A DNA stretch of 64,000 bases from NCBI RefSeq assembly GCF_021049285.1, contig NZ_CP088017.1:3979380-4043379 (forward strand), in the 5' to 3' direction. The notes beneath the pieces were generated by a model. It had not been told where the DNA came from and ran no database searches. It saw nothing but the letters and a program-made list of their open reading frames with translations. The position numbers and the translations under genes are program-made. Each line of letters begins with the position of its first letter. Position 1 is the stretch's first letter. The DNA comes from Ruania halotolerans. Its GTDB lineage: Bacteria; Actinomycetota; Actinomycetes; Actinomycetales; Beutenbergiaceae. Shown here one piece after another: positions 18,260-32,832 of the stretch.

Positions 18260-19099
18260 TCAGGTTGGATAACCGAAGCGAGCGGTGTAGTGCCAGACCC
18301 GCTTGAGGATCTGCTCCTCCTCGCGACCCGCCCGGGCGGCATCGCCCACCACCCGAGCCGTCAGTGCTCCGTCGACGGCAATGCGGGCGGCGGCCTCGAT
18401 GACGTGGCAGCCGCGATAGCCGGGATGCTGCGACACGGCGTCCACGGTGGTGGCGAAGCCGGGGTGCCACTCGACCGGGACACCCAGCTCGTGGGCGTCG
18501 CCCTCGACGTCGGTGCCGCGGTAGCAGGGGTCCAGGACCAGGGCTTCGACGTCGCGCTCGAAATGGACACCGCCGTGGACATGGGCTTCGACGTAGTCGT
18601 CGAGCAGGTCCTGCTCATCGGCGTCGGCGAGGTCGGTCAGGCTCATGTGCGCGGCGGTGCCCAGGTTGACCGGCTCCAGGACGCTGTCGGGGTAGCAGAA
18701 GGTGGTGCGCTGCAGGCTGGCGGCGCTCAGGCGGAAGTGCGCTGAACCGAAGCGGGGAGAGCCACCGACCGAGCGCTGGCGATGATTCAGCGAGCCGTAG
18801 ACGGGACGGGCGGCGCTGGGTGCATCGTCGTAGACGCTGGCGAACAGCCGGCTCTCCCAACGCCAGCGGTCACCGCCGGGGTGAGCGGTGAGCCCGCCAT
18901 TGCTGGTGCCGGTTTCGAACTGTGAGCGGTAGCGTCCGTCGGTGGCCATGAGGCGCAGGATCGGCGTCCCACCGGGGAGGCGATCGGGATGGAAGTGCAG
19001 CGTCACCCGCCACGTCGGGTCGATGGGCCGACCGCGGGCCAGTCGGTCGACGTGCGCCAGGGCGGAGACTGCCCACGTGAGGTCCGGTGCTGTGCTCAC
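18260..19099 (-). CDS. DUF3626 domain protein
   Basis: About 279 aa. The segment VTLHFHPDRLPGGTPILRLMATDGRYRSQFETGTSNGG matches my recollection of the actinobacterial DUF3626 family. Other visible features are a His/Asp-rich core (YVEAHVHGGVHFERDVEALVLDPCYRGT) that could bind metal and a C-terminal helical tail. The function of the family is not known. The GTG start at 19099 is the best guess; an upstream in-frame extension to 19297 would overlap the promoter side of the kinase gene. No operon partner. Confidence 0.6.
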   Translation of the reverse strand: MSTAPDLTWAVSALAHVDRLARGRPIDPTWRVTLHFHPDRLPGGTPILRLMATDGRYRSQFETGTSNGGLTAHPGGDRWRWESRLFASVYDDAPSAARPVYGSLNHRQRSVGGSPRFGSAHFRLSAASLQRTTFCYPDSVLEPVNLGTAAHMSLTDLADADEQDLLDDYVEAHVHGGVHFERDVEALVLDPCYRGTDVEGDAHELGVPVEWHPGFATTVDAVSQHPGYRGCHVIEAAARIAVDGALTARVVGDAARAGREEEQILKRVWHYTARFGYPT

Positions 19100-19226
19100 A
19101 CGCCTAGCCTGCCTGCTGCGGGCTGCATCCCACGCGGCTCGCCGCGCGTCAGACCTGATGCGAGCCAGGTTGACACCGCGGACGCGTGAGCCCGCGATGG
19201 CCCTGAGGGCAGGGCCCTCCGGCGGC

Positions 19227-20381
19227 TCATTCCGCCACAGCGGCGACACGAGGAAGGAACACCCGGAAGCACGCACCGCCGTCGACGTTCTCCACACTGA
19301 CCCGCCCGGCGTGAGCCTCGACGATGCCTCGGACGATCGCCAGACCCAACCCCGCCCCGGTGGTGCGCCCGACCGGCCGCGCCGGGGTGCGCGAGCTCGT
19401 GCCGCGCCATCCAGCCTCGAAGACCCGGGTGAGGTCCTCGTGCGCGATCCCGCCGCCGCTGTCGCGCACGGTCAGCACGGCGTTGCCGTCGTGGTCGCGC
19501 GTGGTGTCGACCACGACCTCACCGCCGGCGGGCGAGTGTTGAACGGCGTTCGCCAGCAGGTTCTCGACCACGCGGGTGAGCTCGCGCGGGTCGCCCATGA
19601 CGACGACACCCTCGCCGCCGCGCTCCTGCAACCTCACCTTGCGCGAGGTGGCCAGCACGCGCAGGTCGGCGACGGCGTCGCTCACCAGGTCGTACAGCGC
19701 CACCTCGACCCGCTCCAGCCGCAAGGTCCCGGACTGGATCTTCGACAGCTCGAAGAGCTCGTCGACCATGCCGGAGAGGTGATCGACCTGCGAGCGCACC
19801 TGACGGTGGAAGCGCTCGGGGTCGTCGGCCATGCCGTCGACCAGTGCCTCCGCCATCGCACGCAGGCCGGCCAGCGGGGTGCGCAGGTCGTGCGAGATCC
19901 ACGCCACGAGCTCGCGGCGCGACGCGTCGAGCGCGGCGACCTCCTCGCGAGCCTGGTCCAGCCGGTCGCTGGTGTCAGCGAGCTGTGCCGTCAGCCGCGT
20001 GAGCTCGGACCGATCGCGCGGGTCGATCGTGGCGCGGACCGGCACGCCGTCGCCGAGGGCTTGCGCGAGCTGTGCCACCCGATCGCTGTCCCGCCCGAAC
20101 ACGCGGCCGAGCACCAGCGCCACCGCGACCGAGCTCAACGACGCCGCCGCCGCGACCCACAGCAGCACCGCCAGGTCGTGCTCGGAGAAGTACATCGCCC
20201 ACGCGATCACCACCACCGCGGCCACGAGCGAGACGATCCCGGTCACCGCCACGACGAGCAGCCGCACCAACATCCGCGCGCGCCGCGTGAGCCGCAGCAC
20301 CAACACCCCGAGCAGCCCCGCCACCAACGCGCACCCCAGCGCAACGGCCAGGATGATCGCCAGATCGGCCGCGGGAATCAT
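19227..20381 (-). CDS. Sensor histidine kinase
   Basis: A 384-aa kinase. Two transmembrane segments (residues about 5-30 and 40-90) flank almost no extracellular loop, so the sensed signal is probably in the membrane. A HAMP-like linker precedes the DHp helix, which has the phospho-accepting H164 in WISHDLRTPLAG. The ATPase domain shows an N box (NLLANAVQHSPAG), G1 (DSGGGI) and G2 (GAGLGLAIV). Its start overlaps the stop of the response regulator gene (ATGA type), so the two are translated together. Confidence 0.93.
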   Translation of the reverse strand: MIPAADLAIILAVALGCALVAGLLGVLVLRLTRRARMLVRLLVVAVTGIVSLVAAVVVIAWAMYFSEHDLAVLLWVAAAASLSSVAVALVLGRVFGRDSDRVAQLAQALGDGVPVRATIDPRDRSELTRLTAQLADTSDRLDQAREEVAALDASRRELVAWISHDLRTPLAGLRAMAEALVDGMADDPERFHRQVRSQVDHLSGMVDELFELSKIQSGTLRLERVEVALYDLVSDAVADLRVLATSRKVRLQERGGEGVVVMGDPRELTRVVENLLANAVQHSPAGGEVVVDTTRDHDGNAVLTVRDSGGGIAHEDLTRVFEAGWRGTSSRTPARPVGRTTGAGLGLAIVRGIVEAHAGRVSVENVDGGACFRVFLPRVAAVAE

Positions 20382-21115
20382 GCCGCCTCACCCGGCTCCA
20401 GGCGATAGCCCACGCCCCAGACCGTCACCAGGATCTCGGGCATCGCCGGATCGGCCTCGATCTTCTCCCGCACCCGACGCACCGTGACCGTCACGGTCGA
20501 CAGGTCGCCGAAGTCCCAGCCCCACGCCGCGCGCAGCAGCTGCTCGCGGCTGAACGCCTGCCGTGGATGCTTCAGCAAGTACGCCATCAGGTCGAACTCG
20601 CGCACCGAGAGCGCGAGTTCGGCGCCGTGCCGGCGGATCACCCGCGCCGACACATCCAGGTGGAACGGGCCGACGTCGAACGGTGCCTCCGGGACGGATT
20701 CGTCGATCGTGCGGCGCAGGATCGACAGCACCCGCAGCACCAGCTCCCGCGGCGAGAACGGCTTGCCGAGGTAGTCGTCGGCACCGGCCTCCAGGCCGGC
20801 GATCCGGTCCTCGGTCGACCCGAGCGCGGTCAGCATGATGACCGGCACGCTGCTGGTCGTTCGCAACCGTCGGCACACCTCGACGCCGTCGATGCCGGGC
20901 AGCATCCGGTCCAGCACCACCAGGTCGGGCGGCAGCTCGGCCACCGCACGCATCGCGGCGATGCCGTCGGTGGCCGTCGAGACCAGCAGCCCAGCGGCCT
21001 CGAGATATGTGGTGGCGACCTCGAGCACGGTGGGGTCGTCCTCGACCACGAGCACGCGGCGATCGGCCAGCTCCGCCGGCAGCGGCGCCGTCACCTCGCT
21101 CGGGTCCTCGTTCAC
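20378..21115 (-). CDS. OmpR/PhoB-family response regulator
   Basis: A 245-aa regulator with a receiver domain (EDD near residue 25, phospho-acceptor D69 in LVVLDRMLPG, K118 in LGKPF) and a C-terminal winged helix. It is first in the leftward two-gene signalling unit and divergent from the GT2 gene. The recurring CCGTAAG-type motif in front of the GT2 gene and the cytochrome/phosphorylase pair is a candidate binding site, which is inference. Confidence 0.93.
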   Translation of the reverse strand: MNEDPSEVTAPLPAELADRRVLVVEDDPTVLEVATTYLEAAGLLVSTATDGIAAMRAVAELPPDLVVLDRMLPGIDGVEVCRRLRTTSSVPVIMLTALGSTEDRIAGLEAGADDYLGKPFSPRELVLRVLSILRRTIDESVPEAPFDVGPFHLDVSARVIRRHGAELALSVREFDLMAYLLKHPRQAFSREQLLRAAWGWDFGDLSTVTVTVRRVREKIEADPAMPEILVTVWGVGYRLEPGEAA

Positions 21116-21185
21116 GCCCCCAGCCTAGGTCAGGCGCCTCGGCACACACCGGTCCCCCAGCCCTCCCGACGGCGACTGTCCCCGC

Positions 21186-21198
21186 TTCGTAAGGGTTC
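21186..21198 (+). promoter_or_regulatory. Candidate response-regulator site TTCGTAAGGGTTC
   Basis: It lies 36 bases upstream of the GT2 start, between it and the response regulator gene. It shares CGTAAG and a trailing TTC with sites at 24882-24893 and 24918-24931. Confidence 0.5.
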
Positions 21199-21233
21199 GG
21201 CCGGGTCTCCGGCCGGGCCCGCTCTCTAGCGTC

Positions 21234-21902
21234 ATGACAGTGATCACCACCGTCGACGTCATCCTTCCGTGCCTGAACGAGGCTCAAGCCCTGCCTACGC
21301 TGCTGGCCGGCCTCCCGCCCGGCTACCGGGCCGTCGTGGTCGACAACGGATCGACCGACGGCTCGGCGCGGATCGCGCGCGAGCACGGAGCCACCGTGGT
21401 CACCGAAGCGCGGCGCGGGTTCGGCTCCGCCGCGCACGCGGGGCTGCTCGCGAGCACCGCCGACATCGTCGCGTTCTGCGACGCCGACGGGTCCTTCCGG
21501 CTCTCCGACCTGCCCGCCGTCGTCGAGCCGGTCGCGGCCGAGGCGGCCGACCTCGTGCTCGGACGCCGCCGCACCGGGGTACACGGCGGCTGGCCGCTGC
21601 ACGCCCGCGCCGCCAACCGCGCTCTCACCGCGCTGATCCGGGCACGCACCCCGATACGACTGCACGATCTCGGCCCGATGCGAGCCGCCCGCCGCGAGCA
21701 GCTGCTCGCGCTCGACCTGCAGGACCGGCGCTCCGGGTATCCGCTGGAGATGGTGCTGGCGGCGGCGAGCCACGGCTGGCGGGTACGGGAGGTCGACGTC
21801 GACTACCTGCCTCGCGTGGGCCGGTCGAAGGTCACCGGCACCCTCACCGGCACCGTGACCGCGGTGCGGGACATGTCCCGCCTGCTCGCGGCGGCACGAT
21901 GA
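21234..21902 (+). CDS. Family 2 glycosyltransferase (DPM1/GtrB-like)
   Basis: A 222-aa GT-A transferase. It opens with DVILPCLNEAQALPTLL, continues VVVDNGSTDGSARIA, and carries the metal-binding DADGSF. No membrane anchor is seen. The short length suits transfer of a sugar from a nucleotide donor to a lipid carrier or small acceptor. It starts a tight rightward trio with a four-base overlap to the DUF2064 gene. No Shine-Dalgarno sequence precedes the ATG, so the message may be leaderless. Confidence 0.88.
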   Translation: MTVITTVDVILPCLNEAQALPTLLAGLPPGYRAVVVDNGSTDGSARIAREHGATVVTEARRGFGSAAHAGLLASTADIVAFCDADGSFRLSDLPAVVEPVAAEAADLVLGRRRTGVHGGWPLHARAANRALTALIRARTPIRLHDLGPMRAARREQLLALDLQDRRSGYPLEMVLAAASHGWRVREVDVDYLPRVGRSKVTGTLTGTVTAVRDMSRLLAAAR

Positions 21903-22540
21903 CCACGCTGATCGTGCTCGCGAAAGCGCCCGTGGCCGGCCGCGTCAAGACCCGGTTGCAGCCGGGACTGACGCCGGAGCAGGCCGCCGGCATCGCACGC
22001 GCCAGCCTCGACGACACGCTCCGCACCGGACGAACGCTCGGCGCGACCCGGCTCGTGCTCTGTCTCGACGGCGATCCTGACGGGCTCGACGCGGCCGGCT
22101 ATGACGTGGTGCCGCAGGTGGCCGGCGGGCTCGACGCGCGCATCGACGCCGCCCTCGGCGCGGTCGCCGGCCCCGTGCTCCTCGTCGGGATGGACACCCC
22201 GCAGCTACGTGCGGCGCACCTGCCGCCGCTGCCGGAACCGTGGCCGGTCGGCGTCGACGCCTGGTTCGGCCCCGCCCGCGACGGCGGCTTCTGGGCCCTC
22301 GGCCTCGCCCGGCCGGTCCCTGGTCTCGTCAACGGTGTCCCGATGTCGCGCGCTGACACCGGCGCGCTGATGCTGGCGCGGCTGCGCGAGGCCGGGCTCG
22401 GCGTGCTGCACCTTCCGGAGCTCGTCGACATCGACACCGTGGAAGACCTGGCTGAGGTCGCCGTGCAGATCCCCGGGAGTGCGACGGCGGAGCTCGCCGA
22501 GGTCGTCGGTCTCGCCCGCCCGCTCGGCGTGGTTCGCTGA
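21899..22540 (+). CDS. DUF2064 (TIGR04282-type) nucleotidyl/glycosyltransferase-like protein
   Basis: A 213-aa protein with the nucleotide-diphospho-sugar transferase fold: VLAKAPVAGRVKTRL at the start, LLVGMDTPQL as the metal-binding strand and GPARDGGFWALGL as the acceptor loop. TIGR04282 members are annotated in arsenosugar loci, but no arsenic methylase or radical SAM partner is seen here, so that role is doubtful. It overlaps GT2 upstream and shares one base with the methyltransferase start downstream. Confidence 0.85.
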   Translation: MTTLIVLAKAPVAGRVKTRLQPGLTPEQAAGIARASLDDTLRTGRTLGATRLVLCLDGDPDGLDAAGYDVVPQVAGGLDARIDAALGAVAGPVLLVGMDTPQLRAAHLPPLPEPWPVGVDAWFGPARDGGFWALGLARPVPGLVNGVPMSRADTGALMLARLREAGLGVLHLPELVDIDTVEDLAEVAVQIPGSATAELAEVVGLARPLGVVR

Positions 22541-23214
22541 TGTCGCTGCCCGAGGTCGAGGTGGTCGACGACGGCTTCGGCCGCGGCGGCACCCACCCCT
22601 ACGACACGGCACTGCTGCGCCGGACGCCGTTGACGCTGCTCGATCTGGGGGACGCCAGCGCCCCGCGCCAGATGGACGTGCCCCAGTTCCTGCGCGCGGC
22701 GGACGCGGTCGAGGCGGAGCTGGTGCGCTCGCTGACCGGGCCGCTGCTCGACGTCGGATGTGGTCCTGGGCGGATGGTCGCCGCGGCGAGCCGTGCTGGG
22801 CTACGCGCGCTCGGGGTCGACATCTCCCCGACGGCGATAGCGATCGCTCGGCAGCGAGGGTTGCCGGTGCTGCTGCGCTCGGTCGACGACCCGCTCCCCG
22901 GCGAGGGCCGGTGGGGCTCGATCCTGCTGCTGGACGGCAACATCGGCATCGGCGGTGACCCGGCCGCACTGCTGCGCCGGTGCGCCGCACTCGCCGCGCG
23001 CGAGGGCGTGGTCGTCGTCGAGGCGCACCCCGACGACGACCACGACACCACCTTCGACGCGGTCCTCGCCGATCCGGACGGAGGGCGAAGCCACCGGTTC
23101 CGCTGGGCGGAGAGTGGCCGGGACGCGCTCGCGCGGCACGCGCGGGCGGCGGGCCTCAGGACTCGTCGGCAGTGGCGGCGCGGCGAACGAAGCTTCGTCG
23201 TTCTCGGACGGTGA
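22540..23214 (+). CDS. Class I SAM-dependent methyltransferase
   Basis: A 224-aa protein with SAM-binding motif I LLDVGCGPGRMVAAA, motif II GVDIS and the strand WGSILLLDGNIGIGG. It is probably a small-molecule O- or N-methyltransferase; the acceptor is unknown. It is third in the GT2-DUF2064 unit. Its last 59 bases overlap the convergent membrane-protein gene. Confidence 0.85.
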   Translation: MSLPEVEVVDDGFGRGGTHPYDTALLRRTPLTLLDLGDASAPRQMDVPQFLRAADAVEAELVRSLTGPLLDVGCGPGRMVAAASRAGLRALGVDISPTAIAIARQRGLPVLLRSVDDPLPGEGRWGSILLLDGNIGIGGDPAALLRRCAALAAREGVVVVEAHPDDDHDTTFDAVLADPDGGRSHRFRWAESGRDALARHARAAGLRTRRQWRRGERSFVVLGR

Positions 23215-23611
23215 GCACCGCGGCGATCGCCACGCCGAGCACCGCGATCACCAGCCACGCCACCGCGAGCGCCTGCGCGTAGTCCACCTGCAGCACGGAA
23301 GCGTTGCGCGGGCCCCGGGCACGGGCCAGGATCGCGGGCACGGCAACGATCGTCAGCACGGTCCCGATGCCGAACGCCGTGCGCAGCACCAGCCTGGCCG
23401 GGTGCGCGAGCGTGCGGGTGACACGGTCGGCACCCAGCCCGAAGACCTGCAGCAGGGGCACAAGAACGCCGTCGTGCACCACGATCGCCCCCGCCAGCCA
23501 CACGCCGAGCCCGAGCAGCTGCCACAGCGGCACATCGGCGAGCAGGGTCAACACGCCGACGCCGAGCAGCAGCACCCCGGCGACACCGATCAGTCCGCGA
23601 GCGAGCCTCAT
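23156..23611 (-). CDS. Small membrane protein with four predicted helices
   Basis: A 151-aa protein with four hydrophobic helices (RGLIGVAGVLLLGVGVLTLL; LLGLGVWLAGAIVVHDGVLV; LRTAFGIGTVLTIVAVPAIL; ALAVAWLVIAVLGVAIAAVL) and a basic C-terminus. I do not recognise a family. Its ATG overlaps the stop of the molybdopterin oxidoreductase gene (ATGA), so it belongs to that three-gene unit and may be an accessory or electron-transfer partner, which is inference. Confidence 0.75.
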   Translation of the reverse strand: MRLARGLIGVAGVLLLGVGVLTLLADVPLWQLLGLGVWLAGAIVVHDGVLVPLLQVFGLGADRVTRTLAHPARLVLRTAFGIGTVLTIVAVPAILARARGPRNASVLQVDYAQALAVAWLVIAVLGVAIAAVLTVRERRSFVRRAATADES

Positions 23612-24231
23612 CCGAGTACCTCCACCCGACTGAGCCATTTCGTCTGCAGCACGCCCGGGCGGGCGGGTGCGATCACACGCGCAGGGAAGCCGTGGTCCAG
23701 GTGCAGCGGTTCGCCGTTGAGCTCAAGCGCGACGAGCGTCGCGGAGTCCCGGACGAACTCGGCGCCCATCTCGGAGGAGCCGTAGGCGCCGCGGGTCTGA
23801 AGGCTGCTGAAGCGGACGTCCTGCCGGTCCGGCAGTCCTGCCGCGCCCAGCAGGTCGCGCAGTCGCACGCCGCGCCAGCGCGCCATCGTGCTCCAGCCCT
23901 CGACGCACGCGATCGGTAGCTCCAGCTGGGTCTGCGGCAGGGAGCGCAGCCGGTCCAGGCCGAACCCGGCGGTGCCGGCAGCCCCGGCTACCGTCAGCGA
24001 CCAGTCCGCGGCGACCGCGGTCTCCAGCACCTGCGCCTCCTCGGCCGTGCGGTTGACCGGCACCCCCTGCGGCCCCTCGCCCTGCTGCCGCGGCGCGAAC
24101 ACGGTGAGTGGTGCCAGCGGCTCCCAGGTCTGACCGGCGGTGGTCGCGACCAGCGCACCGGTCGCGATGCCGGTGCCGAGCAGGAACGCGCGGCGGCTGA
24201 GCCGTCCGGTCGCGTCGTCGTCCGTCGTCAT
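23608..24231 (-). CDS. Molybdopterin-dependent oxidoreductase (sulfite-oxidase/MsrP superfamily), Tat-exported
   Basis: A 207-aa protein with a Tat signal (RLSRRAFLLGTG) and the oxidoreductase molybdopterin-binding domain. The conserved Mo-ligand cysteine is in ELPIACVEGWS. It should act on the outer membrane face and take or give electrons through the neighbouring cytochrome b, as MsrP does with MsrQ. At 207 aa it is shorter than full sulfite oxidases and lacks a dimerisation domain. The substrate is unknown. Its start overlaps the cytochrome gene stop. Confidence 0.88.
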   Translation of the reverse strand: MTTDDDATGRLSRRAFLLGTGIATGALVATTAGQTWEPLAPLTVFAPRQQGEGPQGVPVNRTAEEAQVLETAVAADWSLTVAGAAGTAGFGLDRLRSLPQTQLELPIACVEGWSTMARWRGVRLRDLLGAAGLPDRQDVRFSSLQTRGAYGSSEMGAEFVRDSATLVALELNGEPLHLDHGFPARVIAPARPGVLQTKWLSRVEVLG

Positions 24232-24839
24232 GACTTCTCCTCCGCGTGCTCGGCCGGCGTCTCGATCTCCTCGCCGGACAGGTCTTCGGGCTCCTCAGCC
24301 GTGCGGCGCCAGTGCTCGCGGATCTCGGGAAGCTTGACCGCGACGTGCACCAGCAGCGACCCGACGATCACCCAGGCGAGGCCGTAATGCACGGCACGGA
24401 AAGAGAACGGCCACGGGTACCACTGGTAGGTGTTGATCAACCCGATGACGACCTCCAGCAGCGTCGCCGACACGAGCGCCCCGATGCTCAGCCGCTCCAG
24501 CGCGTTGGGCCAGGACGTCACCGGCGGCCACGCGAACAGCCGCGGGTACACGCTCCAAAGCTTGGCCAGCAGCAGCGGGAAGATCGCCGTCCCGGCGGTG
24601 ACGTGTATGCCTTGCGTCCACCGGTACAGCTCAGTCGGCCGGGTGGGGAACGTGATCCAGTCCGGAGGCTCCTGCAGCAGGTGGCTGTACAGCCCAGTGA
24701 GGAAGCAGAGGACGACCGCCAGCCCTAGCAGCCGCCCGATCACCACTGCCATCCGGGTGTTGCGCACCGGCGACGCCAGGCTGCGCTGCAGGCGGCGCGC
24801 GCGGTCCGCCAGCGCCGAGTCGAGGGGGTCATCGCTCAT
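24228..24839 (-). CDS. Di-heme cytochrome b-type membrane protein
   Basis: A 203-aa protein with about four helices and histidines spaced as heme ligands (GLYSHLLQ, GIHVTAGTAIF, RAVHYGLAW, GSLLVHVAVK). It resembles cytochrome b561/MsrQ-type subunits that pass electrons to an exported molybdoenzyme. It is first in the leftward unit cytochrome-molybdoenzyme-membrane protein. The start at 24839 gives MSDDPLDSAL; longer frames run into the divergent promoter. Confidence 0.82.
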   Translation of the reverse strand: MSDDPLDSALADRARRLQRSLASPVRNTRMAVVIGRLLGLAVVLCFLTGLYSHLLQEPPDWITFPTRPTELYRWTQGIHVTAGTAIFPLLLAKLWSVYPRLFAWPPVTSWPNALERLSIGALVSATLLEVVIGLINTYQWYPWPFSFRAVHYGLAWVIVGSLLVHVAVKLPEIREHWRRTAEEPEDLSGEEIETPAEHAEEKS

Positions 24840-24881
24840 GTCTGCAAGTCTGTGACGGGGACGGGTGCGAGCGCCTGCCTC

Positions 24882-24931
24882 AGTTCTTACGGACCGCGGA
24901 CAGTCAGCCGTCACCGATCCGTAAGGAGTTC
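24882..24931. promoter_or_regulatory. Inverted pair of CCGTAAG-type sites in the divergent promoter
   Basis: AGTTCTTACGGA (24882-24893) and TCCGTAAGGAGTTC (24918-24931) are inverted relative to each other between the cytochrome and phosphorylase genes. They share TCCGTAAG, and a related copy lies before the GT2 gene at 21186. Confidence 0.55.
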
Positions 24932-24987
24932 TCGCCACCCGGCCCCGGTCGACGTTGCCAGGGTTGGGGTGGGACCTGAGGAGGACC

Positions 24988-25857
24988 ATGTCGCACGAAT
25001 CACCGCACCGCATGCACCGGATCCCTGCCGCCGACCCGCCGCATGCGCCGCTGGTGGGCGTGATCGGCGGCACCGGGCTGCAGGAGCTGCTTGGCCCCAC
25101 CGCCGACACCGTCACGATGCGCACCCCGTACGGGCCGCCGTCGGCACCCGTGGCGCTCGGCGAGCTCGCGGGCCGCCGGGTCGCGTTCCTGCCCCGACAC
25201 GGGCCCGGCCATGCGCTGGCTCCCCACGAAATCAACTACCGGGCGAACATCTGGGCGCTCGGCCATCTGGGCGTCCGCGCCCTGGTGACCTCGAACGCCG
25301 TCGGCGGCCTCGCACCGTCGACTCCGCCCGACACGTTCGTGCTGCCCGACCAGCTCATCGACCGGACCCGACGGCGGGAGGACACCTTCGTGGGCGAGGG
25401 CGTGGTCGCGCACGTGGCGCTCGCCGACCCGTACTGTCCCGTCCTGCTCGCCGCCGCCGGGGACGCGTTGCACGGCCTCGGGGAGCCGACCCGGGTGGGT
25501 GGCACGGTGGTGGTCATCGAAGGCCCGCGGTTCTCCACCCGCGCTGAGTCGCGCTGGTTCCGCGACGCCGGGGCACACATCATCAACATGACCCAGTACC
25601 CCGAGGTGGCGCTGGCCGGTGAGTTGGGCATCGGCGTCGTCAACCTCTCGTACGTGACCGACACCGACGCCGGGGATGACGCCGACGATTCCGATGCCGC
25701 CGACGCCGCCCTGGTGCTTGAGCGGATGGCGCGTGCGCGCCCGCGCATCGAGGCGGCGGTGGCCGCGCTGGTGGCGGCGGTGCCGGCGAGCTACCACCCG
25801 CGAGCGCTGGTGCCCACCGAGGTGTCGGCCGCGCTGCTGGCGCGGGAGGTGCGATGA
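24988..25857 (+). CDS. S-methyl-5'-thioadenosine phosphorylase-like enzyme
   Basis: A 289-aa member of the PNP/MTAP family. GVIGGTGLQ is the phosphate loop, RHGPGHALAPHEINYRANIW the substrate loop, VVIEGPRFSTRAESRWF and NMTQYPEVALAGELGI the ribose/base pocket. The family releases a purine and a (thio)ribose-1-phosphate. Its position among glycosyl- and methyltransferase genes suggests it supplies a pentose-1-phosphate or works on a nucleoside intermediate, rather than plain methionine salvage; that is inference. GAGGAGG precedes the ATG. Its stop overlaps the next start. Confidence 0.88.
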   Translation: MSHESPHRMHRIPAADPPHAPLVGVIGGTGLQELLGPTADTVTMRTPYGPPSAPVALGELAGRRVAFLPRHGPGHALAPHEINYRANIWALGHLGVRALVTSNAVGGLAPSTPPDTFVLPDQLIDRTRRREDTFVGEGVVAHVALADPYCPVLLAAAGDALHGLGEPTRVGGTVVVIEGPRFSTRAESRWFRDAGAHIINMTQYPEVALAGELGIGVVNLSYVTDTDAGDDADDSDAADAALVLERMARARPRIEAAVAALVAAVPASYHPRALVPTEVSAALLAREVR

Positions 25858-26933
25858 CCACGCTGCTCGTCACCGGCGGTGCGGGGTTCATCGGCTCGAA
25901 GGTGGTCGACGCCGCGCTCGAGCGCGGCTGGCGGGTGCGGCTGCTGGACTCCTTCCGGGCCGACGTGCACGGTGAAGCGCCCGCTGCGCTGGCCGAGCAC
26001 CCCGATCTCGAGGTGGTGGCGGGTGACGTCGGCGACGCTGCGGTGATCGGGCCGCTGCTGCGCGGCGTGGACGTGGTCTGCCACCAGGCGGCCAAGGTCG
26101 GGCTCGGCGTCGGGATGTCGGACGCGCCCGACTACGTGGCGAGCAACGACCTCGCGACGGCGGTGCTGCTGTCGGCGATGGCCGAGCAGGGGGTCGGTCG
26201 GCTGGTGCTGGCGTCGTCGATGGTGGTCTACGGCGAGGGCCGGTACCGGGACGAGACCGGCGATGTCGAGGTGCCGCCGCGGCGGACGGTCGACCTCGAG
26301 GCCTGCCGGTTCGAACCGATCTCGCCGCGCACCGGCCACCCGCTCACCGCGCTGCTGATCACCGAGACCGCCCGCCTCGACCCGCGCAACGTCTACGCTG
26401 CCTCCAAGGTCGCGCAGGAGCACCTCGCCGCGTCATGGGCGCGCAGCTGCGGCGGCAGGGCGGCGATGCTGCGCTACCACAACGTCTACGGGCCGGGGAT
26501 GCCGACGGGCACCCCGTACGCCGGGGTGGCCGCGATCTTCCGTACCGCGCTCGCCGAGGGCCGCGCGCCGCGCGTCTTCGAGGACGGCGGCCAGCGCCGC
26601 GACTTCGTGCACGTACGGGACGTGGCCGCGGCCAACCTCGCGGCAGTCGGATGGACGAGCACGAGCGAACCGGGCGCGGTGCGTCCCTTCAACGTGGGCA
26701 GCGGTGAGGTCCGCACGATCGGGGAGATGGCGCGGGCGTTGTCCGCGGCGGTCGGCGGTCCGGAACCGGTCGTGACCGGCGAGTACCGGCTCGGCGACGT
26801 GCGCCACATCACCGCGTCCTCGGACCGGCTCCGAACCGAGACCGACTGGACGCCGCAGGTCACCTTCGCCGCGGGGATGAGTGAGCTCGCGACCGCACCG
26901 ATGCGGCCGGCGGCGACCGGACAGGCGCGATGA
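25854..26933 (+). CDS. NAD-dependent nucleotide-sugar epimerase/dehydratase (extended SDR)
   Basis: A 359-aa extended SDR. GGAGFIGSKVVD binds NAD, and YAASKVAQEH holds the catalytic Tyr-x3-Lys. RYHNVYGPGMPTGTPY and RRDFVHVRDVA are typical of UDP-glucose 4-epimerase-like enzymes that act on nucleotide sugars. It overlaps the phosphorylase and the membrane protein genes by four bases on each side, so the three are one unit. Confidence 0.88.
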   Translation: MTTLLVTGGAGFIGSKVVDAALERGWRVRLLDSFRADVHGEAPAALAEHPDLEVVAGDVGDAAVIGPLLRGVDVVCHQAAKVGLGVGMSDAPDYVASNDLATAVLLSAMAEQGVGRLVLASSMVVYGEGRYRDETGDVEVPPRRTVDLEACRFEPISPRTGHPLTALLITETARLDPRNVYAASKVAQEHLAASWARSCGGRAAMLRYHNVYGPGMPTGTPYAGVAAIFRTALAEGRAPRVFEDGGQRRDFVHVRDVAAANLAAVGWTSTSEPGAVRPFNVGSGEVRTIGEMARALSAAVGGPEPVVTGEYRLGDVRHITASSDRLRTETDWTPQVTFAAGMSELATAPMRPAATGQAR

Positions 26934-28321
26934 GCGACGCCCCGGGCGGACTGTCGGGTGCGGCGACGGGCACCGAGGCGGACGCCCCCGCAGCCGCCGG
27001 GCGGCGCCGAGCCTCGCCGCAGCTGGTCGCGCTGGTGGCGACGCTGGCGCTGATCGCGGTGGCCGCACTGCTGCCGCCCCTGGCAGGGATGGATGTCAGG
27101 GTGCCGTCACCGCCGCTGATGGCGCGGTGGATGCCGCGAGTCGGCCCGGGAACGGTCGTGGCGCTCGCAGTGGCGGTGCTCGTGGCGGTGGCCGGTCCGC
27201 GGGTCGCGGGCCGGTGGTCCTGGAGGCGGCTGCTGGTGGCGGTCTACCTGACCGCCGTCGTCTGGGCGACCGCCCTCGCCGCGGTCGACGGCCTCGACGG
27301 GCTGGGCGCGATCCTCCAGGGCCCGAACGAGTACCTCGGCACCGCGCGCGCGGTCACCGATGTCGGAGCGATGCTGCACGAGTACGTGGATCGGATCCCG
27401 TTCTCGCACCCCGACAACTGGCCGGTCCACGTGGCGGGGCACCCGCCGGGTGCGGTGCTGGTGTTCGTCGGACTGGTGCGCCTCGGGCTGGGCTCGGGAC
27501 TGGCGGCGGGATCGGTGGTGCTGCTGGTGGGAGCCACGACGCCGGTGGCCGTGATGATGCTGCTGCGCCGCCTCGGTGCGGCCGACCTCGCTCGCGTGGC
27601 TGCGCCGTTCCTGGCCGCGGCGCCGACGGCGATCTGGATGGCGGTCTCCGCCGACGGGCTGTTCACCGCCGTGGCGGCGTGGGGGCTGGCCGCCCTGGGC
27701 TACGCGGCGACCGCGCACCGCGTTCGCGGTGTGGCCGGGTTCGGGGTGCTGGCCGGCGTGCTGCTCGGCGCCTGCGTGATGATGTCGTACGGGCTGGTGC
27801 TGCTGGGCGTGCTCGCCGTGGCGGTGCTGGTGGTCGCGCGCCGGTGGCAGCCGCTGCCGTGGGCGGCCGGTGCTGCGCTGGCGGTGGTGGGCGGGTTCGC
27901 GCTGGGGGGCTTCGCGTGGTGGGAGGCGTACCCGGTGCTCGTGCAGCGGTACTGGGACGGCATCGCCTCCTCGCGACCGGGTGGCTACTGGATCTGGGCG
28001 AACCTCGCCGCGCTCGCCGTCAGCGCGGGCGTGGTGCTCGGACCCGTGCTGACCACCGCGCTGCCGCGGCTGCGGCAGACCTGGCGGGGATCGGGATCGG
28101 TGCGCGTGGTCGCGCTCCTGGTGACCGCGGCCGCCGTCACGATCGTCCTGGCGGACCTCTCGCAGATGAGCCGCTCCGAGGTCGAACGGATCTGGCTGCC
28201 GTTCGTGCCGTGGCTGCTCGTGGGGACCTCGCTGCTTCCGCCGCGGTGGCGACGTCTCGCGCTGCCGTGCCAGCTCGTGCTCGCCCTGGCCGTCCAGCAC
28301 CTCTTCCACACGTTCTGGTGA
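26930..28321 (+). CDS. Polytopic membrane protein, possible GT-C glycosyltransferase
   Basis: A 463-aa protein with about ten to twelve hydrophobic helices. After the first helices a loop reads WPVHVAGHPPGAVLVF; an HPPG motif of this kind occurs in actinobacterial GT-C-like mannosyl- and arabinosyltransferase relatives. No certain catalytic acid is assigned. With the epimerase, GT2 and phosphorylase it would suit transfer of a lipid-linked sugar across or at the membrane, which is inference. Confidence 0.65.
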   Translation: MSDAPGGLSGAATGTEADAPAAAGRRRASPQLVALVATLALIAVAALLPPLAGMDVRVPSPPLMARWMPRVGPGTVVALAVAVLVAVAGPRVAGRWSWRRLLVAVYLTAVVWATALAAVDGLDGLGAILQGPNEYLGTARAVTDVGAMLHEYVDRIPFSHPDNWPVHVAGHPPGAVLVFVGLVRLGLGSGLAAGSVVLLVGATTPVAVMMLLRRLGAADLARVAAPFLAAAPTAIWMAVSADGLFTAVAAWGLAALGYAATAHRVRGVAGFGVLAGVLLGACVMMSYGLVLLGVLAVAVLVVARRWQPLPWAAGAALAVVGGFALGGFAWWEAYPVLVQRYWDGIASSRPGGYWIWANLAALAVSAGVVLGPVLTTALPRLRQTWRGSGSVRVVALLVTAAAVTIVLADLSQMSRSEVERIWLPFVPWLLVGTSLLPPRWRRLALPCQLVLALAVQHLFHTFW

Positions 28322-29235: not shown

Positions 29236-29548
29236 TTAGCGGTCGCGAGCGGATCCCCAACCGGGAGCAGTCGCCGACAAACTCGTCGTGGGCTCCCGCC
29301 CCGGTGGAGCGCCCGCGTCGATCGCGGCGGTATGACGCACCTTGTGGTCAATCCGCAAGCCGGCTTGATCGCGATTGCGGTGACCTCCAGCGGCCACCTT
29401 CCGGCTCGAGTTTGGATTCAATAAGGCGCCTTCGGTAGACGGGTTCGCCGAAAGATTCGGAATGGCCCGACCTTGAGAGCGCTAGCTGCCGACGTTGCAG
29501 CAAGCGATGTGGTCGAATATGAGTTCCGCAACCCGAAGGCGACACACT
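29236..29548. other. Non-coding stretch upstream of the Gabija-like pair
   Basis: No frame with coding character is seen on either strand. It should hold the promoter of the nuclease-helicase unit. A ribosome-site-like GAAGGCG lies before the proposed TTG start. Confidence 0.5.
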
Positions 29549-31357
29549 TTGAAGATCCGGAGAATCGACATCGAGAACTTCCGCGGCATCCGGAGGCTGT
29601 CGTGGAGTCTGCCCGTCGACCAGACGTTCTTCGTCCTGATCGGGCCCGGAGACGCGAGGAAGTCGACAATCCTCACTGCTCTCGAGCGCGGGCTGAGCGA
29701 CCGGTGGAACATCACGTTCACCGATACCGACTTCTATCGCGGGGAACTGAGCGAGCCCATCCGTATCCGTATTGCGATGACTGCCATTCCCCAGGACCTG
29801 CTCGGTGTGGAGGATCTGGGTCTGCACCTTGCGGGCATCAACGCGGTGGGTGAGTGGTCTCACGACCCGGAGGACGGGTTCGAGGAGTGTGTGATCGTGG
29901 AGCTTCGGGTTGATGCGGACCTGGAGCCTGAGTGGGTTGCGTATCGGCCTGACGCTGACGACGACGAGGAGCGGCACGTTCTACGGGCGCGTCACCGTTC
30001 CCGGTTCGGGACGTTCCGTGTTGATGAGCGGGTTGATGCTCATCTGCGGTGGACGCGGATGTCTGCGTTGGGGAAGTTGACGGAGAAGAAGGGGGACGCC
30101 CGCAAGACACTGACGTTGGCGAACCGTGCGGCTCGTGAGGCGGTATCTACTGCGGTCCCGCCGGACCTGCAGCGCCTGGCTGACGATGTTGGGAATGCGG
30201 TATCGGCGATCGGGAGCGCCAAGTTCGAGGACCTTCGGCCGGGGCTGGACATCTCCCTGACGAGCGCGCAGGGGAACCTCGCGCTGTTCGATGGTCCGGT
30301 CCCGTTGACGAACTTCGGGTTGGGAACCCGGCGTCTGGCGGGTGCGGCTGCGCAGCAGCTTGCGCACGAGGACTCGACGATCTTGCTCGTCGATGAAGTG
30401 GAGTACGGGCTCGAACCGCATCGGCTGGTTCACCTGCTGCGGTATCTCCAGCGCAAGGACACGTTCTCGCAGGTATTCGTCACGACGCACTCTCCGTCGG
30501 CGTTGCAGCATCTGGATCCGTCCGACTTGGTGATGGTTCGGTCGGAGGACGGGGAGACGGTTGCGATGTCGCTGGGCGACCCGGTGACGTTGAAGCCGGT
30601 CATCAAGGCCAGCCCGGAGGCGTTTCTGGCCCGCCGGGTCGTCATGGGCGAAGGCAAGACCGAGTACGGACTTCTGCTCGGCCTGTTCGAGTCGTGGGAC
30701 ACCGAGTTGCAGGCGGCGGATAGTGTCCCGACTGCGGCGCTCGGGGTCGTCGGCGTTGAGGGCTCGGGAGGAACGGGATCTGCTGGTCGAGCCAAGGAGC
30801 TTCTCAATGCCGGATACGAGGTCGTCCTCGTCCTCGACAGCGACGACCAGGCTGCGAATGCGCTCGTGCCCGACGTGGAGGCCGCGGGCGGGAAGGTCGT
30901 GCAGTGGGCTGGAGGCGTATGTACCGAGCGGGCAATCTGTGACCAGCTTTCCGCCGAGGGCCTGACGGCGTTCATCGACACGGCTGTTGAGGCGGCCGAC
31001 GACCCTGAAACGTCCCGGGTGTCTTTCGCTGACCAGCTGAAGGCACGTGGCGCAGCCATTGTCAGTGAGAAGGACGCACAGCTCGACATCGCGGCGTGGG
31101 TGGCAGCCGGCACCACGTTGGAGCAGGCACGAGTGACGGTCGGCGACACCGCGAAACACAAGAGCTGGTTCAAGAACGTCGACCGGGGCAAGGCACTCGC
31201 CGCATTTGTGCTTAGCCGGCCCGAGCTGGCCGAGGGTGCGGTTGCTGCCACGCTGGCCAAGGTCCGAGAGCACACCTACTACCAACCTGAACCCGCACCG
31301 AACGATGCGCCGCCCGAAGAGGCCGACGGCACCGCGGTCGTCGAGGCGGACAAGTGA
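29549..31357 (+). CDS. OLD-family ATPase/TOPRIM nuclease, Gabija GajA-like
   Basis: A 602-aa protein. The N-terminal ABC/RecF-type ATPase has IENFRGIRRLSW and a P-loop-like GPGDARKST (residues 32-40) in which Arg takes the place of the usual second Gly. Walker B is ILLVDEVEYGLEPHR and the switch is VTTHSPSA. A C-terminal TOPRIM domain shows E368 in MGEGKTE and D430/D432 in LVLDSDD, the metal-binding set of OLD nucleases. Gabija defence pairs such a nuclease with a UvrD-like helicase, which is the next gene with a GTGA overlap. The TTG start follows GAAGGCG; ATG 29519 is an alternative. Base composition is less GC-rich than that of the neighbours, suggesting acquisition. Confidence 0.8.
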   Translation: MKIRRIDIENFRGIRRLSWSLPVDQTFFVLIGPGDARKSTILTALERGLSDRWNITFTDTDFYRGELSEPIRIRIAMTAIPQDLLGVEDLGLHLAGINAVGEWSHDPEDGFEECVIVELRVDADLEPEWVAYRPDADDDEERHVLRARHRSRFGTFRVDERVDAHLRWTRMSALGKLTEKKGDARKTLTLANRAAREAVSTAVPPDLQRLADDVGNAVSAIGSAKFEDLRPGLDISLTSAQGNLALFDGPVPLTNFGLGTRRLAGAAAQQLAHEDSTILLVDEVEYGLEPHRLVHLLRYLQRKDTFSQVFVTTHSPSALQHLDPSDLVMVRSEDGETVAMSLGDPVTLKPVIKASPEAFLARRVVMGEGKTEYGLLLGLFESWDTELQAADSVPTAALGVVGVEGSGGTGSAGRAKELLNAGYEVVLVLDSDDQAANALVPDVEAAGGKVVQWAGGVCTERAICDQLSAEGLTAFIDTAVEAADDPETSRVSFADQLKARGAAIVSEKDAQLDIAAWVAAGTTLEQARVTVGDTAKHKSWFKNVDRGKALAAFVLSRPELAEGAVAATLAKVREHTYYQPEPAPNDAPPEEADGTAVVEADK

Positions 31358-32832
31358 GCGACGAACTCGAGGCCACGGCGGCCGGGCTAATAACTGCGCT
31401 ACCCGTCTCGGTCACCCTGCCCGCTGGCACTGGCAAGACGCATCTGCTCGCCGAAGCCGCGCGCCAGATCGTCGCGCACGGTGGCCGGACCCTGATCCTG
31501 ACCCACACCAACGCGGGCGTTCACGCGATCCAGAAGCGTCTGAAGTCCTTCGGAATCACGGCCGGCGCACGCGTCTTCACACTGACCAGCTTCGGGTTCC
31601 TCCTGGCTCGCGCCTACCCGAACATAGGACAGCTGAAGGTTCCACCGACACCCGACTGGGACGACTCGGAGAGTTACATCACCGCGGCGCACCGCATCAC
31701 CACGATCCACACCATCCGTCGAGTCCTCGCCGCCTCCTACAGCCATGCCCTGGTTGATGAGTACCAGGACTGCAGCGAGACCCAACACCAGTTCGTGTGC
31801 GCTATCGCCGAAGCCATCCCGGCAACCGGTGTCCTCGGAGACCCCAAGCAAGCCATCTTCGAGTTCCGCGGCAACACCCTCGTCACGTGGGAAGACGTCC
31901 AAGCCAGGTTTCCCGACCACCCGATTGAGCCGAAGCCGTGGCGATGGCTCGAACACAACCAGCCCCTCGGAGAGTGGCTCCTCAAGGCGCGCACCGCACT
32001 GACGCCAGGCAGCGTCATCGATTTCTCCGCCATCAAGCTCCCGGCAGGCGTCGAGTACCGCAGTTCCGGGACCGACCGCCGAGCAGCCGCCAACGCCGCC
32101 CTCAAGTACCGACCGGCGGGCGAAACGACCGTCGTCATCTCCCCCTGGGAGAACACCGCCAGACGCGCCGCAGCCGACCTCAAGGGCGCGTTCACCATGA
32201 TGGAAGAAGTCGCCGGTGCGTTCATGGGCGACCGCCTCCGCGAACTCGCTGCCGCCAACCCTGAGCAATTCGCAACCTGGCTCATCAACCTGACTAAGCG
32301 CTGCACCTGCGGTCACGCCCAACTCAACGACGGCGTCAAAAACCGGCTCAAAGCTGGCCAGACCACCTCCGGCCTCAAGCGCCCCGGCCTTGAACCCGCG
32401 CTCGCAGCGTTCGACACCGTCGTTGCCAACCCCTCGTACACGTCCCTTGCCACCGCAATGGGCGCCATCCCGAACTCTGCCTCGCTCCGCCTCCACTCCC
32501 ACGAAGCTTGGAACGACATTCAGACCGCGCTCCGTGGCGCAGCCGCCGCAGGCGACAACCCCGATGTCCTCGGAACCGAACTCGCACGAGCACGCGACCG
32601 CATCCGCCACCAAGGCCGCCGAAACCGGAGCAAGGTCGTCTCCCGCACCCTCCTCATCAAGGGCCTTGAGTACGACCACGTCGTGATCGCCGACATCAAC
32701 CAGATAACCGACGTCAATAATCTGTACGTCGCCCTTACCCGAGCACGCAAGACGATCACGATCGTCGGCGCCACAGCGACCATTACCGTCACATGTACCA
32801 AGACCAAGACCAAGACCAGCAATGCGCGGTAA
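31354..32832 (+). CDS. UvrD/Rep-like superfamily 1 helicase, Gabija GajB-like
   Basis: A 492-aa protein with compact SF1 motifs: Walker A LPAGTGKTHLL (residues 22-32), motif II VDEYQDCSETQ, motif III GDPKQAIFEFRG, a motif V-like LLIKGLEYDHVVI and motif VI YVALTRARKT. The size is close to that of known GajB proteins and much shorter than UvrD. It begins with GTG overlapping the nuclease stop, so both are made together. The predicted role is sensing or processing of phage DNA ends with the partner nuclease. The C-terminus ends in a Thr/Lys-rich tail (TCTKTKTKTS). Confidence 0.82.
   Translation: MSDELEATAAGLITALPVSVTLPAGTGKTHLLAEAARQIVAHGGRTLILTHTNAGVHAIQKRLKSFGITAGARVFTLTSFGFLLARAYPNIGQLKVPPTPDWDDSESYITAAHRITTIHTIRRVLAASYSHALVDEYQDCSETQHQFVCAIAEAIPATGVLGDPKQAIFEFRGNTLVTWEDVQARFPDHPIEPKPWRWLEHNQPLGEWLLKARTALTPGSVIDFSAIKLPAGVEYRSSGTDRRAAANAALKYRPAGETTVVISPWENTARRAAADLKGAFTMMEEVAGAFMGDRLRELAAANPEQFATWLINLTKRCTCGHAQLNDGVKNRLKAGQTTSGLKRPGLEPALAAFDTVVANPSYTSLATAMGAIPNSASLRLHSHEAWNDIQTALRGAAAAGDNPDVLGTELARARDRIRHQGRRNRSKVVSRTLLIKGLEYDHVVIADINQITDVNNLYVALTRARKTITIVGATATITVTCTKTKTKTSNAR

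What the first reader, a model, noticed from the sequence alone, without database searches (positions are those of the whole stretch)
19227..28321. Undescribed-looking locus joining glycosylation, methylation, nucleoside phosphorolysis and membrane redox
A two-component system, GT2, DUF2064, methyltransferase, Tat-exported molybdoenzyme with cytochrome b, MTAP-like phosphorylase, nucleotide-sugar epimerase and a GT-C-like membrane protein are packed with mostly 1-4 base overlaps. I know of no described pathway with this set. A possible reading: the phosphorylase supplies an unusual pentose-1-phosphate, DUF2064 or GT2 activates and transfers it to a carrier, the membrane protein finishes an exported glycolipid, and the molybdoenzyme modifies or protects it outside. 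Arsenosugar synthesis, suggested by DUF2064 annotations, does not fit because its other enzymes are absent.
Basis: partly seen in the sequence, partly recalled or inferred. Interest (0 to 1): 0.7.

Follow-up and report, generated by a model that had tools for sequence, protein, structure and literature searches.

The report
Methylthio-sugar decoration cluster in actinobacteria
This gene cluster looks like an enlarged version of the pathway by which tubercle bacilli put a rare sulfur-containing sugar on their surface, carried by many other actinobacteria and joined to an outside enzyme that probably repairs the sugar's sulfur when it is oxidised.

Summary
They form a real unit: of 80 distinct relative loci with full flanks, 58 hold GT2, DUF2064, epimerase, methyltransferase, Mo enzyme and cytochrome b beside the GT-C gene, in 12 gene orders. 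New here are (1) wide distribution, in this case in a genome without Emb arabinosyltransferases; (2) linkage to an MsrP-like, Tat-type Mo enzyme with cytochrome b (the Sco3746 kind), best read as a sulfoxide reductase for the thioether sugar; (3) a promoter motif shared by three operons. In the two short-form genomes opened, the Mo module sits at a second place. Shown: homology, linkage, folds, motif. Inferred: substrates, sugar identity, redox direction, regulator binding. The methyltransferase's role is unknown. New variant of a known kind.

The parts
19227..20381 (-). Histidine kinase with three predicted TM helices near the N-terminus and no large outside domain (intramembrane-sensing type)
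   Evidence: Pfam HisKA and HATPase_c; hydropathy; in 48 of 80 distinct full-flank loci
20378..21115 (-). OmpR-type response regulator
   Evidence: Pfam Response_reg and Trans_reg_C; in 50 of 80 loci
21178..21193 (+). Promoter motif GTCNNCGNNYCGTAAG before GT2 (between the divergent RR and GT2 genes)
   Evidence: exact match; four exact matches in the 4.27-Mb genome, three of them in this cluster; reversed control two
21234..21902 (+). GT2 polyprenyl-phosphate glycosyltransferase, MtxS-like
   Evidence: Pfam GT2; best NCBIfam models are polyprenyl/dolichyl-phosphate sugar transferases, all below cut-off; 48-55% identity to the GT2 of eight f22 loci, presumed mycobacterial relatives; tree
21899..22540 (+). 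DUF2064, CofC-like; proposed pentose-1-phosphate nucleotidyltransferase
   Evidence: PF09837 58 bits; TIGR04282 115 bits, cut-off 134; the only PF09837 match in the genome
22540..23214 (+). Class I SAM methyltransferase with conserved DxGCGPGR and DGN-x-GIGG motifs; substrate unknown
23156..23638 (-).
23608..24231 (-). Tat-type sulfite-oxidase-family Mo enzyme, catalytic domain only, with the MsrP-like Mo-ligand motif CVEGWS
   Evidence: PF00174 96 bits; Cys109 invariant in 81 rows; motif aligned with E. coli MsrP; fold
24228..24839 (-). Cytochrome b561-like membrane protein; fused to the Mo domain in 68 of 79 distinct loci, separate here
   Evidence: PF01292 30.5 bits, cut-off 30.1; His86 and His158 invariant, His172 in 99% of 84 rows (numbering of the row used there, 7 more than from 24839); fusion count
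24886..24901 (-). Same motif, before the cytochrome b-Mo operon
   Evidence: exact match
24910..24925 (+). Same motif, before the MTAP operon
   Evidence: exact match
24988..25857 (+). MTAP-like phosphorylase with the adenine-type VTD-x-D motif
   Evidence: TIGR01694 253.5 bits, cut-off 274.9; PRK07823 278.7, cut-off 306; T224, D225, D227 in all 72 rows aligned; the only other superfamily match in the genome is punA-like with VTN
25854..26933 (+). Extended SDR nucleotide-sugar epimerase; proposed ribo-to-xylo (C3) epimerase
   Evidence: PF01370 155 bits; Tyr181 and Lys185 invariant in 89 rows
26930..28321 (+). GT-C membrane glycosyltransferase, MtxT-like
   Evidence: GT-C fold; homologues in 154 of 394 class genomes at E 1e-10

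Best explanation
The cluster makes, exports and maintains a polyprenyl-phosphate-linked 5-deoxy-5-methylthio-pentofuranose of the MTX type and attaches it to a cell-surface glycan. Proposed steps: (1) the MTAP-like enzyme splits 5'-methylthioadenosine, a by-product of SAM use, into adenine and 5-methylthioribose-1-phosphate; (2) DUF2064 converts this to a nucleotide sugar; (3) the epimerase inverts one centre (C3 if the product is xylo); (4) the GT2 moves the sugar to polyprenyl phosphate (MtxS role); (5) after flipping, the GT-C protein transfers it to the outside acceptor (MtxT role), which here is unlikely to be an Emb-made arabinan; (6) outside, the MsrP-like Mo enzyme, fed from the quinol pool by the cytochrome b, reduces the methylsulfinyl form back to methylthio; (7) the intramembrane kinase and OmpR regulator switch on the three enzyme operons through a shared motif. 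Shown: homology, linkage, folds, motif. Inferred: every substrate, the order of steps 2-4, the direction of step 6, and the regulator-motif pairing. The methyltransferase has no assigned step; O-methylation of the sugar is a guess.
For: Five of the genes recur as PNP-epimerase-GT2-DUF2064-GT-C in genomes G226 and G467. In G226 menA lies next to PNP and menE next to GT-C, with an SDR and FadD8 further on, which matches the order of Rv0534c-Rv0551c (recalled). Published: MtxS (Rv0539) forms MTX-P-C50 and MtxT (Rv0541c) adds MTX to LAM mannoside caps; MTX and its sulfoxide MSX both occur on LAM. Trees group the short-layout f22 GT2 and epimerase with the long-layout ones. GT-C fold: the ten best rows are lipid-linked-sugar transferases. 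Adenine-type motif in all 72 phosphorylases aligned; no MtnA match in the genome; the only other PNP-family match is punA-like. Mo-ligand motif CVE[G/A]WS shared with E. coli MsrP, which also lies near a two-component system. Mo, MT and GT-C linkage kept in 12 gene orders. Exact motif four times in the genome, three here, reversed control two; in 84 loci not looked at when the motif was made, 60 sites inside clusters (599 kb) against 12 outside (962 kb), and 33 of 47 loci with RR have a site against 11 of 37 without.
Against: No chemistry was found for any non-mycobacterial member. The key paper (Angala 2017) is not held; only Rv0539 and Rv0541c were seen described, so the roles of Rv0535, Rv0536 and Rv0540 are inference or recall. 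No call names a Mycobacterium. The genome has no Emb match, so the acceptor is unknown. MTAP is absent from 25 of 80 distinct loci. Of 80 genomes with a strong GT-C match, 23 have no listed Mo match within 15 kb. The Mo model is closer to sulfite oxidase (Z 18.2) than to MsrP (Z 13.9-14.2), and the cytochrome has no significant match to MsrQ. Several family scores lie under their curated cut-offs. With one mismatch allowed the motif is no commoner than its reversed control (34 against 60).
Confidence: 0.6

Rival explanations
1. Same architecture, different sugar: the phosphorylase uses adenosine, 5'-deoxyadenosine or another nucleoside, and the cluster decorates a glycan with a plain, 5-deoxy or O-methyl pentofuranose. 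The Mo enzyme then has another substrate.
For: The MTAP-like protein scores below the MTAP equivalog cut-offs. MTAP is missing from 25 of 80 distinct loci. The extra methyltransferase fits an O-methylated sugar. In four clusters opened no GT-C homologue was found, and in three of them another many-TM ORF lies there.
Against: Gene-order match to the locus of MtxS and MtxT; adenine-type motif in all 72 phosphorylases aligned; a sulfoxide-type Mo enzyme fits a thioether sugar better than a plain pentose.
Confidence: 0.25
2. The Mo enzyme works the other way (it oxidises the methylthio sugar to methylsulfinyl and passes electrons to the quinone pool), or it serves methionine sulfoxide in envelope proteins and is only a companion.
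For: Closest fold neighbours are sulfite oxidases and dehydrogenases. The authors who described Sco3746 compare it with MsrPQ, which repairs proteins. In 37 of 150 listed rows the Mo gene is not within 15 kb of a GT-C although the genome has one (some are on short contigs).
Against: The Mo-ligand motif is that of MsrP, a reductase; linkage to the sugar genes persists across 12 gene orders, more than a general repair enzyme needs.
Confidence: 0.3
3. Arsenosugar synthesis.
For: DUF2064 and GT2 hit the NCBIfam 'arsenosugar' models TIGR04282 and TIGR04283.
Against: Both below cut-off (115 against 134; 40.9 against 182 bits). No ArsS- or ArsM-like partner was recognised by eye among the 30 neighbour clusters printed, which were not annotated. 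The methyltransferase's only well-conserved cysteine lies in the SAM motif.
Confidence: 0.02
4. Unrelated genes packed by chance.
For: High-GC genomes have short intergenic distances; no GT-C match in the 10 other same-genus or same-family genomes searched.
Against: Same set in many families and gene orders; shared promoter motif.
Confidence: 0.01

Closest known systems
Mycobacterial methylthioxylose (MTX) capping of lipoarabinomannan: MtxS (Rv0539), MtxT (Rv0541c), with neighbours Rv0535, Rv0536, Rv0540 (neighbours recalled)
   Same: Same five gene families; the short f22 layout is a subset of this cluster, and its GT2 and epimerase group with the long layout
   Different: Here the genes are joined to a Mo enzyme, cytochrome b, small membrane protein, methyltransferase and two-component system, in a genome without an Emb match; the product has not been analysed
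E. coli MsrP-MsrQ with HprSR
   Same: Tat-type Mo enzyme with the Mo-ligand motif CVE(A/G)WS, a heme-b-type membrane partner and a two-component system nearby
   Different: No significant similarity of the cytochrome to MsrQ; MsrP equivalog score far below cut-off (29.8 against 207 bits); linked to sugar genes
Sco3746 family of heme-Mo membrane proteins (dual Sec/Tat), PMC5449189
   Same: Four-TM cytochrome b, twin arginine before a fifth TM, then a Mo domain; 68 of 79 distinct loci encode this fusion
   Different: Two genes in the window and in 11 of 79 other loci; the passages I read test membrane assembly, not enzyme function
Arsenosugar DUF2064 and GT2 enzymes (TIGR04282, TIGR04283)
   Same: Related families, thought to handle another 5-substituted pentose (recalled)
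   Different: Below cut-offs; the other arsenosugar enzymes were not recognised nearby

Membership tests
MTX (MtxS/MtxT) pathway | GT2 of the MtxS lineage | tested here: met
   48-55% identity to the GT2 of eight f22 loci; tree. That the short f22 loci are Rv0539's locus rests on gene order and recall.
MTX (MtxS/MtxT) pathway | GT-C protein of the MtxT lineage with GT-C fold | tested here: met
   40-46% identity in nine f22 loci, same caveat; fold
MTX (MtxS/MtxT) pathway | Nucleoside phosphorylase able to give 5-methylthioribose-1-phosphate | tested here: inconclusive
   MTAP-like, adenine-type motif in 72 of 72 rows aligned, but below the equivalog cut-offs
MTX (MtxS/MtxT) pathway | Arabinan-bearing LAM as acceptor | tested here: not met
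   No PF04602 match in the genome; the C. glutamicum control rings
MTX (MtxS/MtxT) pathway | Product is 5-methylthio-xylofuranose | not testable with these tools
   needs chemistry
MsrP (protein methionine sulfoxide reductase) | Mo-ligand cysteine in CVE(A/G)WS | tested here: met
MsrP (protein methionine sulfoxide reductase) | NCBIfam MsrP equivalog score | tested here: not met
   29.8 bits, cut-off 207
MsrP (protein methionine sulfoxide reductase) | MsrQ-type partner | tested here: not met
   no significant blastp match to E. coli MsrQ
MsrP (protein methionine sulfoxide reductase) | Reduces protein methionine sulfoxide | not testable with these tools
   needs an assay
Sco3746 heme-Mo family | Cytochrome b with conserved TM histidines, twin arginine before a TM helix, Mo domain | tested here: met
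   His86, His158, His172 conserved and Arg13-Arg14 in 98% of rows; RR before the TM segment
Sco3746 heme-Mo family | Single fused polypeptide | tested here: not met
   two genes in the window; fused in 68 of 79 distinct relatives
Arsenosugar pathway | TIGR04282 and TIGR04283 at cut-off | tested here: not met
   115 against 134 and 40.9 against 182 bits
Arsenosugar pathway | ArsS radical SAM and ArsM nearby | tested here: inconclusive
   none recognised by eye among the 30 neighbour clusters printed, which were not annotated; no family search was run for them

The most novel reading that the evidence does not exclude
A methylthio sugar treated as a hallmark of tuberculosis-complex LAM belongs to an old, widely shared actinobacterial surface-glycan system that includes its own quinol-fed, outside Mo sulfoxide reductase and its own two-component regulator. 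The thioether on the sugar is then a redox-active surface group that cells read and reset, the Sco3746 family has its function, and MTX-making mycobacteria carry the same redox module at a second locus.
Probability: 0.4. Interest if true: 0.82.

Novelty: new variant of a known kind. Interest (0 to 1): 0.6.

Why it matters
MTX is described as the hallmark of M. tuberculosis LAM and as unique to the complex (passages), and a urine test is listed as based on an MTX antibody (table). If environmental actinobacteria make the same or a kindred sugar, its origin and its specificity as a marker need a second look. The linkage also offers a first function for the Sco3746-type heme-Mo proteins, a possible enzyme for the MTX/MSX balance, and an example of redox repair of a glycan instead of a protein. 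It can be tested in harmless bacteria such as Streptomyces.

Tried and rejected
Arsenosugar synthesis: scores below cut-offs, no partner genes recognised. Chance packing: rejected by conservation across gene orders. Usual methionine salvage: no MtnA match in the genome. LAM arabinan as acceptor here: no PF04602 match. Further recurrent cluster members: clusters of unassigned ORFs in 87 loci (two of them duplicates) were judged by size and first residues only; the largest, an ABC-transporter ATPase-like ORF in 28 of 87 loci at a median of 6.9 kb from GT-C, was not followed; one seven-locus cluster was the small membrane protein missed by the first search. Sequence link of the cytochrome to MsrQ: none significant. 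Residue fingerprint of Sco3746 (five positions named in the eLife paper) on two Streptomyces-like loci: at best 3 of 5, so neither is shown to be S. coelicolor. The fourth exact promoter motif, at G000:C1:450740, lies inside a long ORF and is taken as chance. With one mismatch allowed the motif occurs 34 times in the genome and its reversed control 60 times, so only the exact form (four, control two) says anything there. Whether the methyltransferase travels with the sugar genes or with the Mo module stayed undecided: it is beside the Mo module in two of four relocated loci. The Mo-cytochrome of one long-form f22 locus (L135) is only 39% identical to the relocated one, unlike three others at 73-75%.
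Full report
What is there. Eleven genes lie at 19,227-28,321 in four operons: RR-HK on the minus strand; GT2-DUF2064-methyltransferase on plus; cytochrome b-Mo enzyme-small membrane protein on minus; MTAP-like phosphorylase-epimerase-membrane protein on plus. The membrane protein matched neither library at E 0.001, but its model (mean pLDDT 80, nine sequences) has the GT-C fold: the best rows are ALG12, ArnT, AglB, Pmt and OST, users of lipid-linked sugars; further down are arabinosyltransferases and also a GPI-transamidase subunit. About the first 90 residues are barely tested there.

Is it a unit? A GT-C search of 149 genomes of the order found 9, the window's own included; none of the 3 other same-genus and 7 same-family genomes had one. 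A profile search of 394 genomes of the class found 154 at E 1e-10, in 43 of 138 genera. The loci were chosen by GT-C homology and are related to each other, 29 of the 58 sharing one order, so they are not independent, but reshuffled order with kept content points to selection. No GT-C match in its nearest kin and a GC content of 0.72-0.75 at 20-28 kb, against 0.61-0.72 in the rest of the window, suggest horizontal gain in this genome.

Link to a known pathway. In two genomes of family f22 (G226, G467) the genes are PNP-epimerase-gap-GT2-DUF2064-GT-C without the Mo, MT or regulator genes. In G226 menA lies beyond PNP and menE beyond GT-C, followed by an SDR and FadD8; this is, from recall, the order of M. 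tuberculosis Rv0534c-Rv0551c. PMC8780516 (passages) says MtxS (Rv0539) forms MTX-P-C50 and MtxT (Rv0541c) transfers MTX to LAM mannoside caps, citing Angala 2017, which is not held. Other f22 genomes have the long form. In the GT2 tree the six g67 rows, two short and four long, form one fork (93/98); in the epimerase tree two short rows and one long form one fork (100/99). So the window cluster is an enlarged relative of the MTX locus. In the epimerase tree the window falls in a starred set of 11 mostly Microbacteriaceae rows; in the GT2 tree its place is not resolved. With 48-55% GT2 identity to the f22 forms an identical product is not assured.

The Mo module. In 68 of 79 distinct relatives the cytochrome b and Mo domains are one protein; in 11 of 79, and in the window, they are two. 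The fused form matches the architecture of Sco3746, described as a Sec- and Tat-dependent heme-Mo protein that the authors liken to MsrPQ (PMC5449189, passages). Two papers put an OmpR-type RR-HK pair at SCO3741-SCO3740 (PMC9739842, table passage) and a putative methyltransferase at SCO3744 (PMC6135851, table passage). The order Mo, small protein, MT, DUF2064, GT2, RR, HK in Streptomyces-like locus L138 would fit SCO3746 down to SCO3740; that is a match of numbers, not a reading of that genome. The Mo-ligand motif CVEGWS aligns with MsrP's CVEAWS; the fold is that of the sulfite oxidase family, closer to sulfite oxidase (Z 18.2) than to MsrP (Z 13.9-14.2). Of 150 listed Mo-profile rows, 75 lie within 15 kb of a transcribed GT-C row, 37 do not although the genome has one, and 38 are in genomes without one; of 80 genomes with a strong GT-C row, 57 have a Mo row that close and 23 do not. 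In G226 and G467 MT, fused cytochrome-Mo and the small protein sit together at a second place; in G460 and G314 the fusion and the small protein do, without MT. The G226 fusion is 73-75% identical to the in-cluster ones of three long-form f22 loci and 39% to a fourth. From recall this second place resembles Rv0217c-Rv0219; its neighbours were not annotated. Since LAM carries both MTX and its sulfoxide MSX (PMC8531672, passages), a dedicated outside sulfoxide reductase is the simplest role; the direction is not shown.

Swapped transferase. Four clusters from genomes without a GT-C match were opened (three in family f37, one in the window's order). All four keep GT2, DUF2064, MT, Mo, cytochrome b and epimerase, and three (L154-L156) hold another many-TM ORF of similar size; in L153 the printed ORF mixes frames. 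I read this as a changed acceptor with the donor part kept.

Supply of the sugar. Cluster phosphorylases keep T-D-x-D in all 72 rows aligned. The only other PNP-family match of the genome is punA-like and has VTN. No MtnA match was found, so methylthioribose-1-phosphate seems to lack the usual salvage route here. This fits, but does not prove, methylthioadenosine as the source. Three papers were listed as holding both 'methylthioadenosine' and 'lipoarabinomannan'; by title none is on this topic, and none was opened.

Regulation. CGTAAG is enriched upstream of cluster genes: 131 of 595 upstream stretches against 101 of 5,400 random ones (divergent genes share stretches, so some sites count twice). 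The longer form GTCNNCGNNYCGTAAG was built from the window and some of 15 loci printed, so its presence in the window is by construction; the test is the rest. In the whole genome it occurs exactly four times: before GT2, before the cytochrome-Mo operon, before the MTAP operon, and once inside a long ORF elsewhere; the reversed control occurs twice. In 84 loci not printed when it was made (a few of them duplicates), 60 sites with up to one mismatch fall inside clusters and 12 outside; 33 of 47 loci with an RR have one against 11 of 37 without. Relatedness of loci makes the p-values too small. That the cluster's regulator binds it is an inference.

Novelty. In the listings of searches for methylthioxylose, MtxS/MtxT, Rv and SCO numbers, Rv0218 and MsrP (several lists capped) and in the passages read, I saw no description of the enlarged cluster or of MTX outside mycobacteria. 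The library lacks most subscription papers, and most listed papers were not opened. I therefore rate it a new variant of a known kind.

Noticed in passing
window 29495-32832 (+): A Gabija anti-phage defence pair (best PADLOC models GajA 558 bits, GajB 425 bits) begins 1.2 kb after the cluster.
   Followed up: partly
window 18260-19297 (-): A DUF3626 protein (PF12294) overlaps the 3' end of the histidine kinase gene by 71 bases on the same strand if its listed GTG start is right; the true start is probably further in.
   Followed up: no
G000:C1:2203648, 3511353, 2261220, 3829292: The genome holds four further sulfite-oxidase-family (PF00174) matches besides the cluster's.
   Followed up: no
L130:14051-15721 (+) and L130:11942-13762 (-): Two genes between epimerase and GT2 in a short-form f22 locus: a DUF7937 protein (411 bits) and a 606-aa ORF without a family match; their link to MTX is unknown.
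   Followed up: no
G202, G426, G467, G329: Some genomes carry two GT-C homologues, and G202, G426 and G329 a Mo gene beside each, so the cluster may be doubled there.
   Followed up: no
28 of 87 loci, (example L050:17447-18391): An ABC-transporter ATPase-like ORF recurs at a median of 6.9 kb from the GT-C gene; it may be lineage synteny or an unnoticed partner.
   Followed up: no
L165 (E. coli K-12): E. coli msrPQ also lies near a two-component system (HprSR, with hiuH between), a layout like the one seen here.
   Followed up: no
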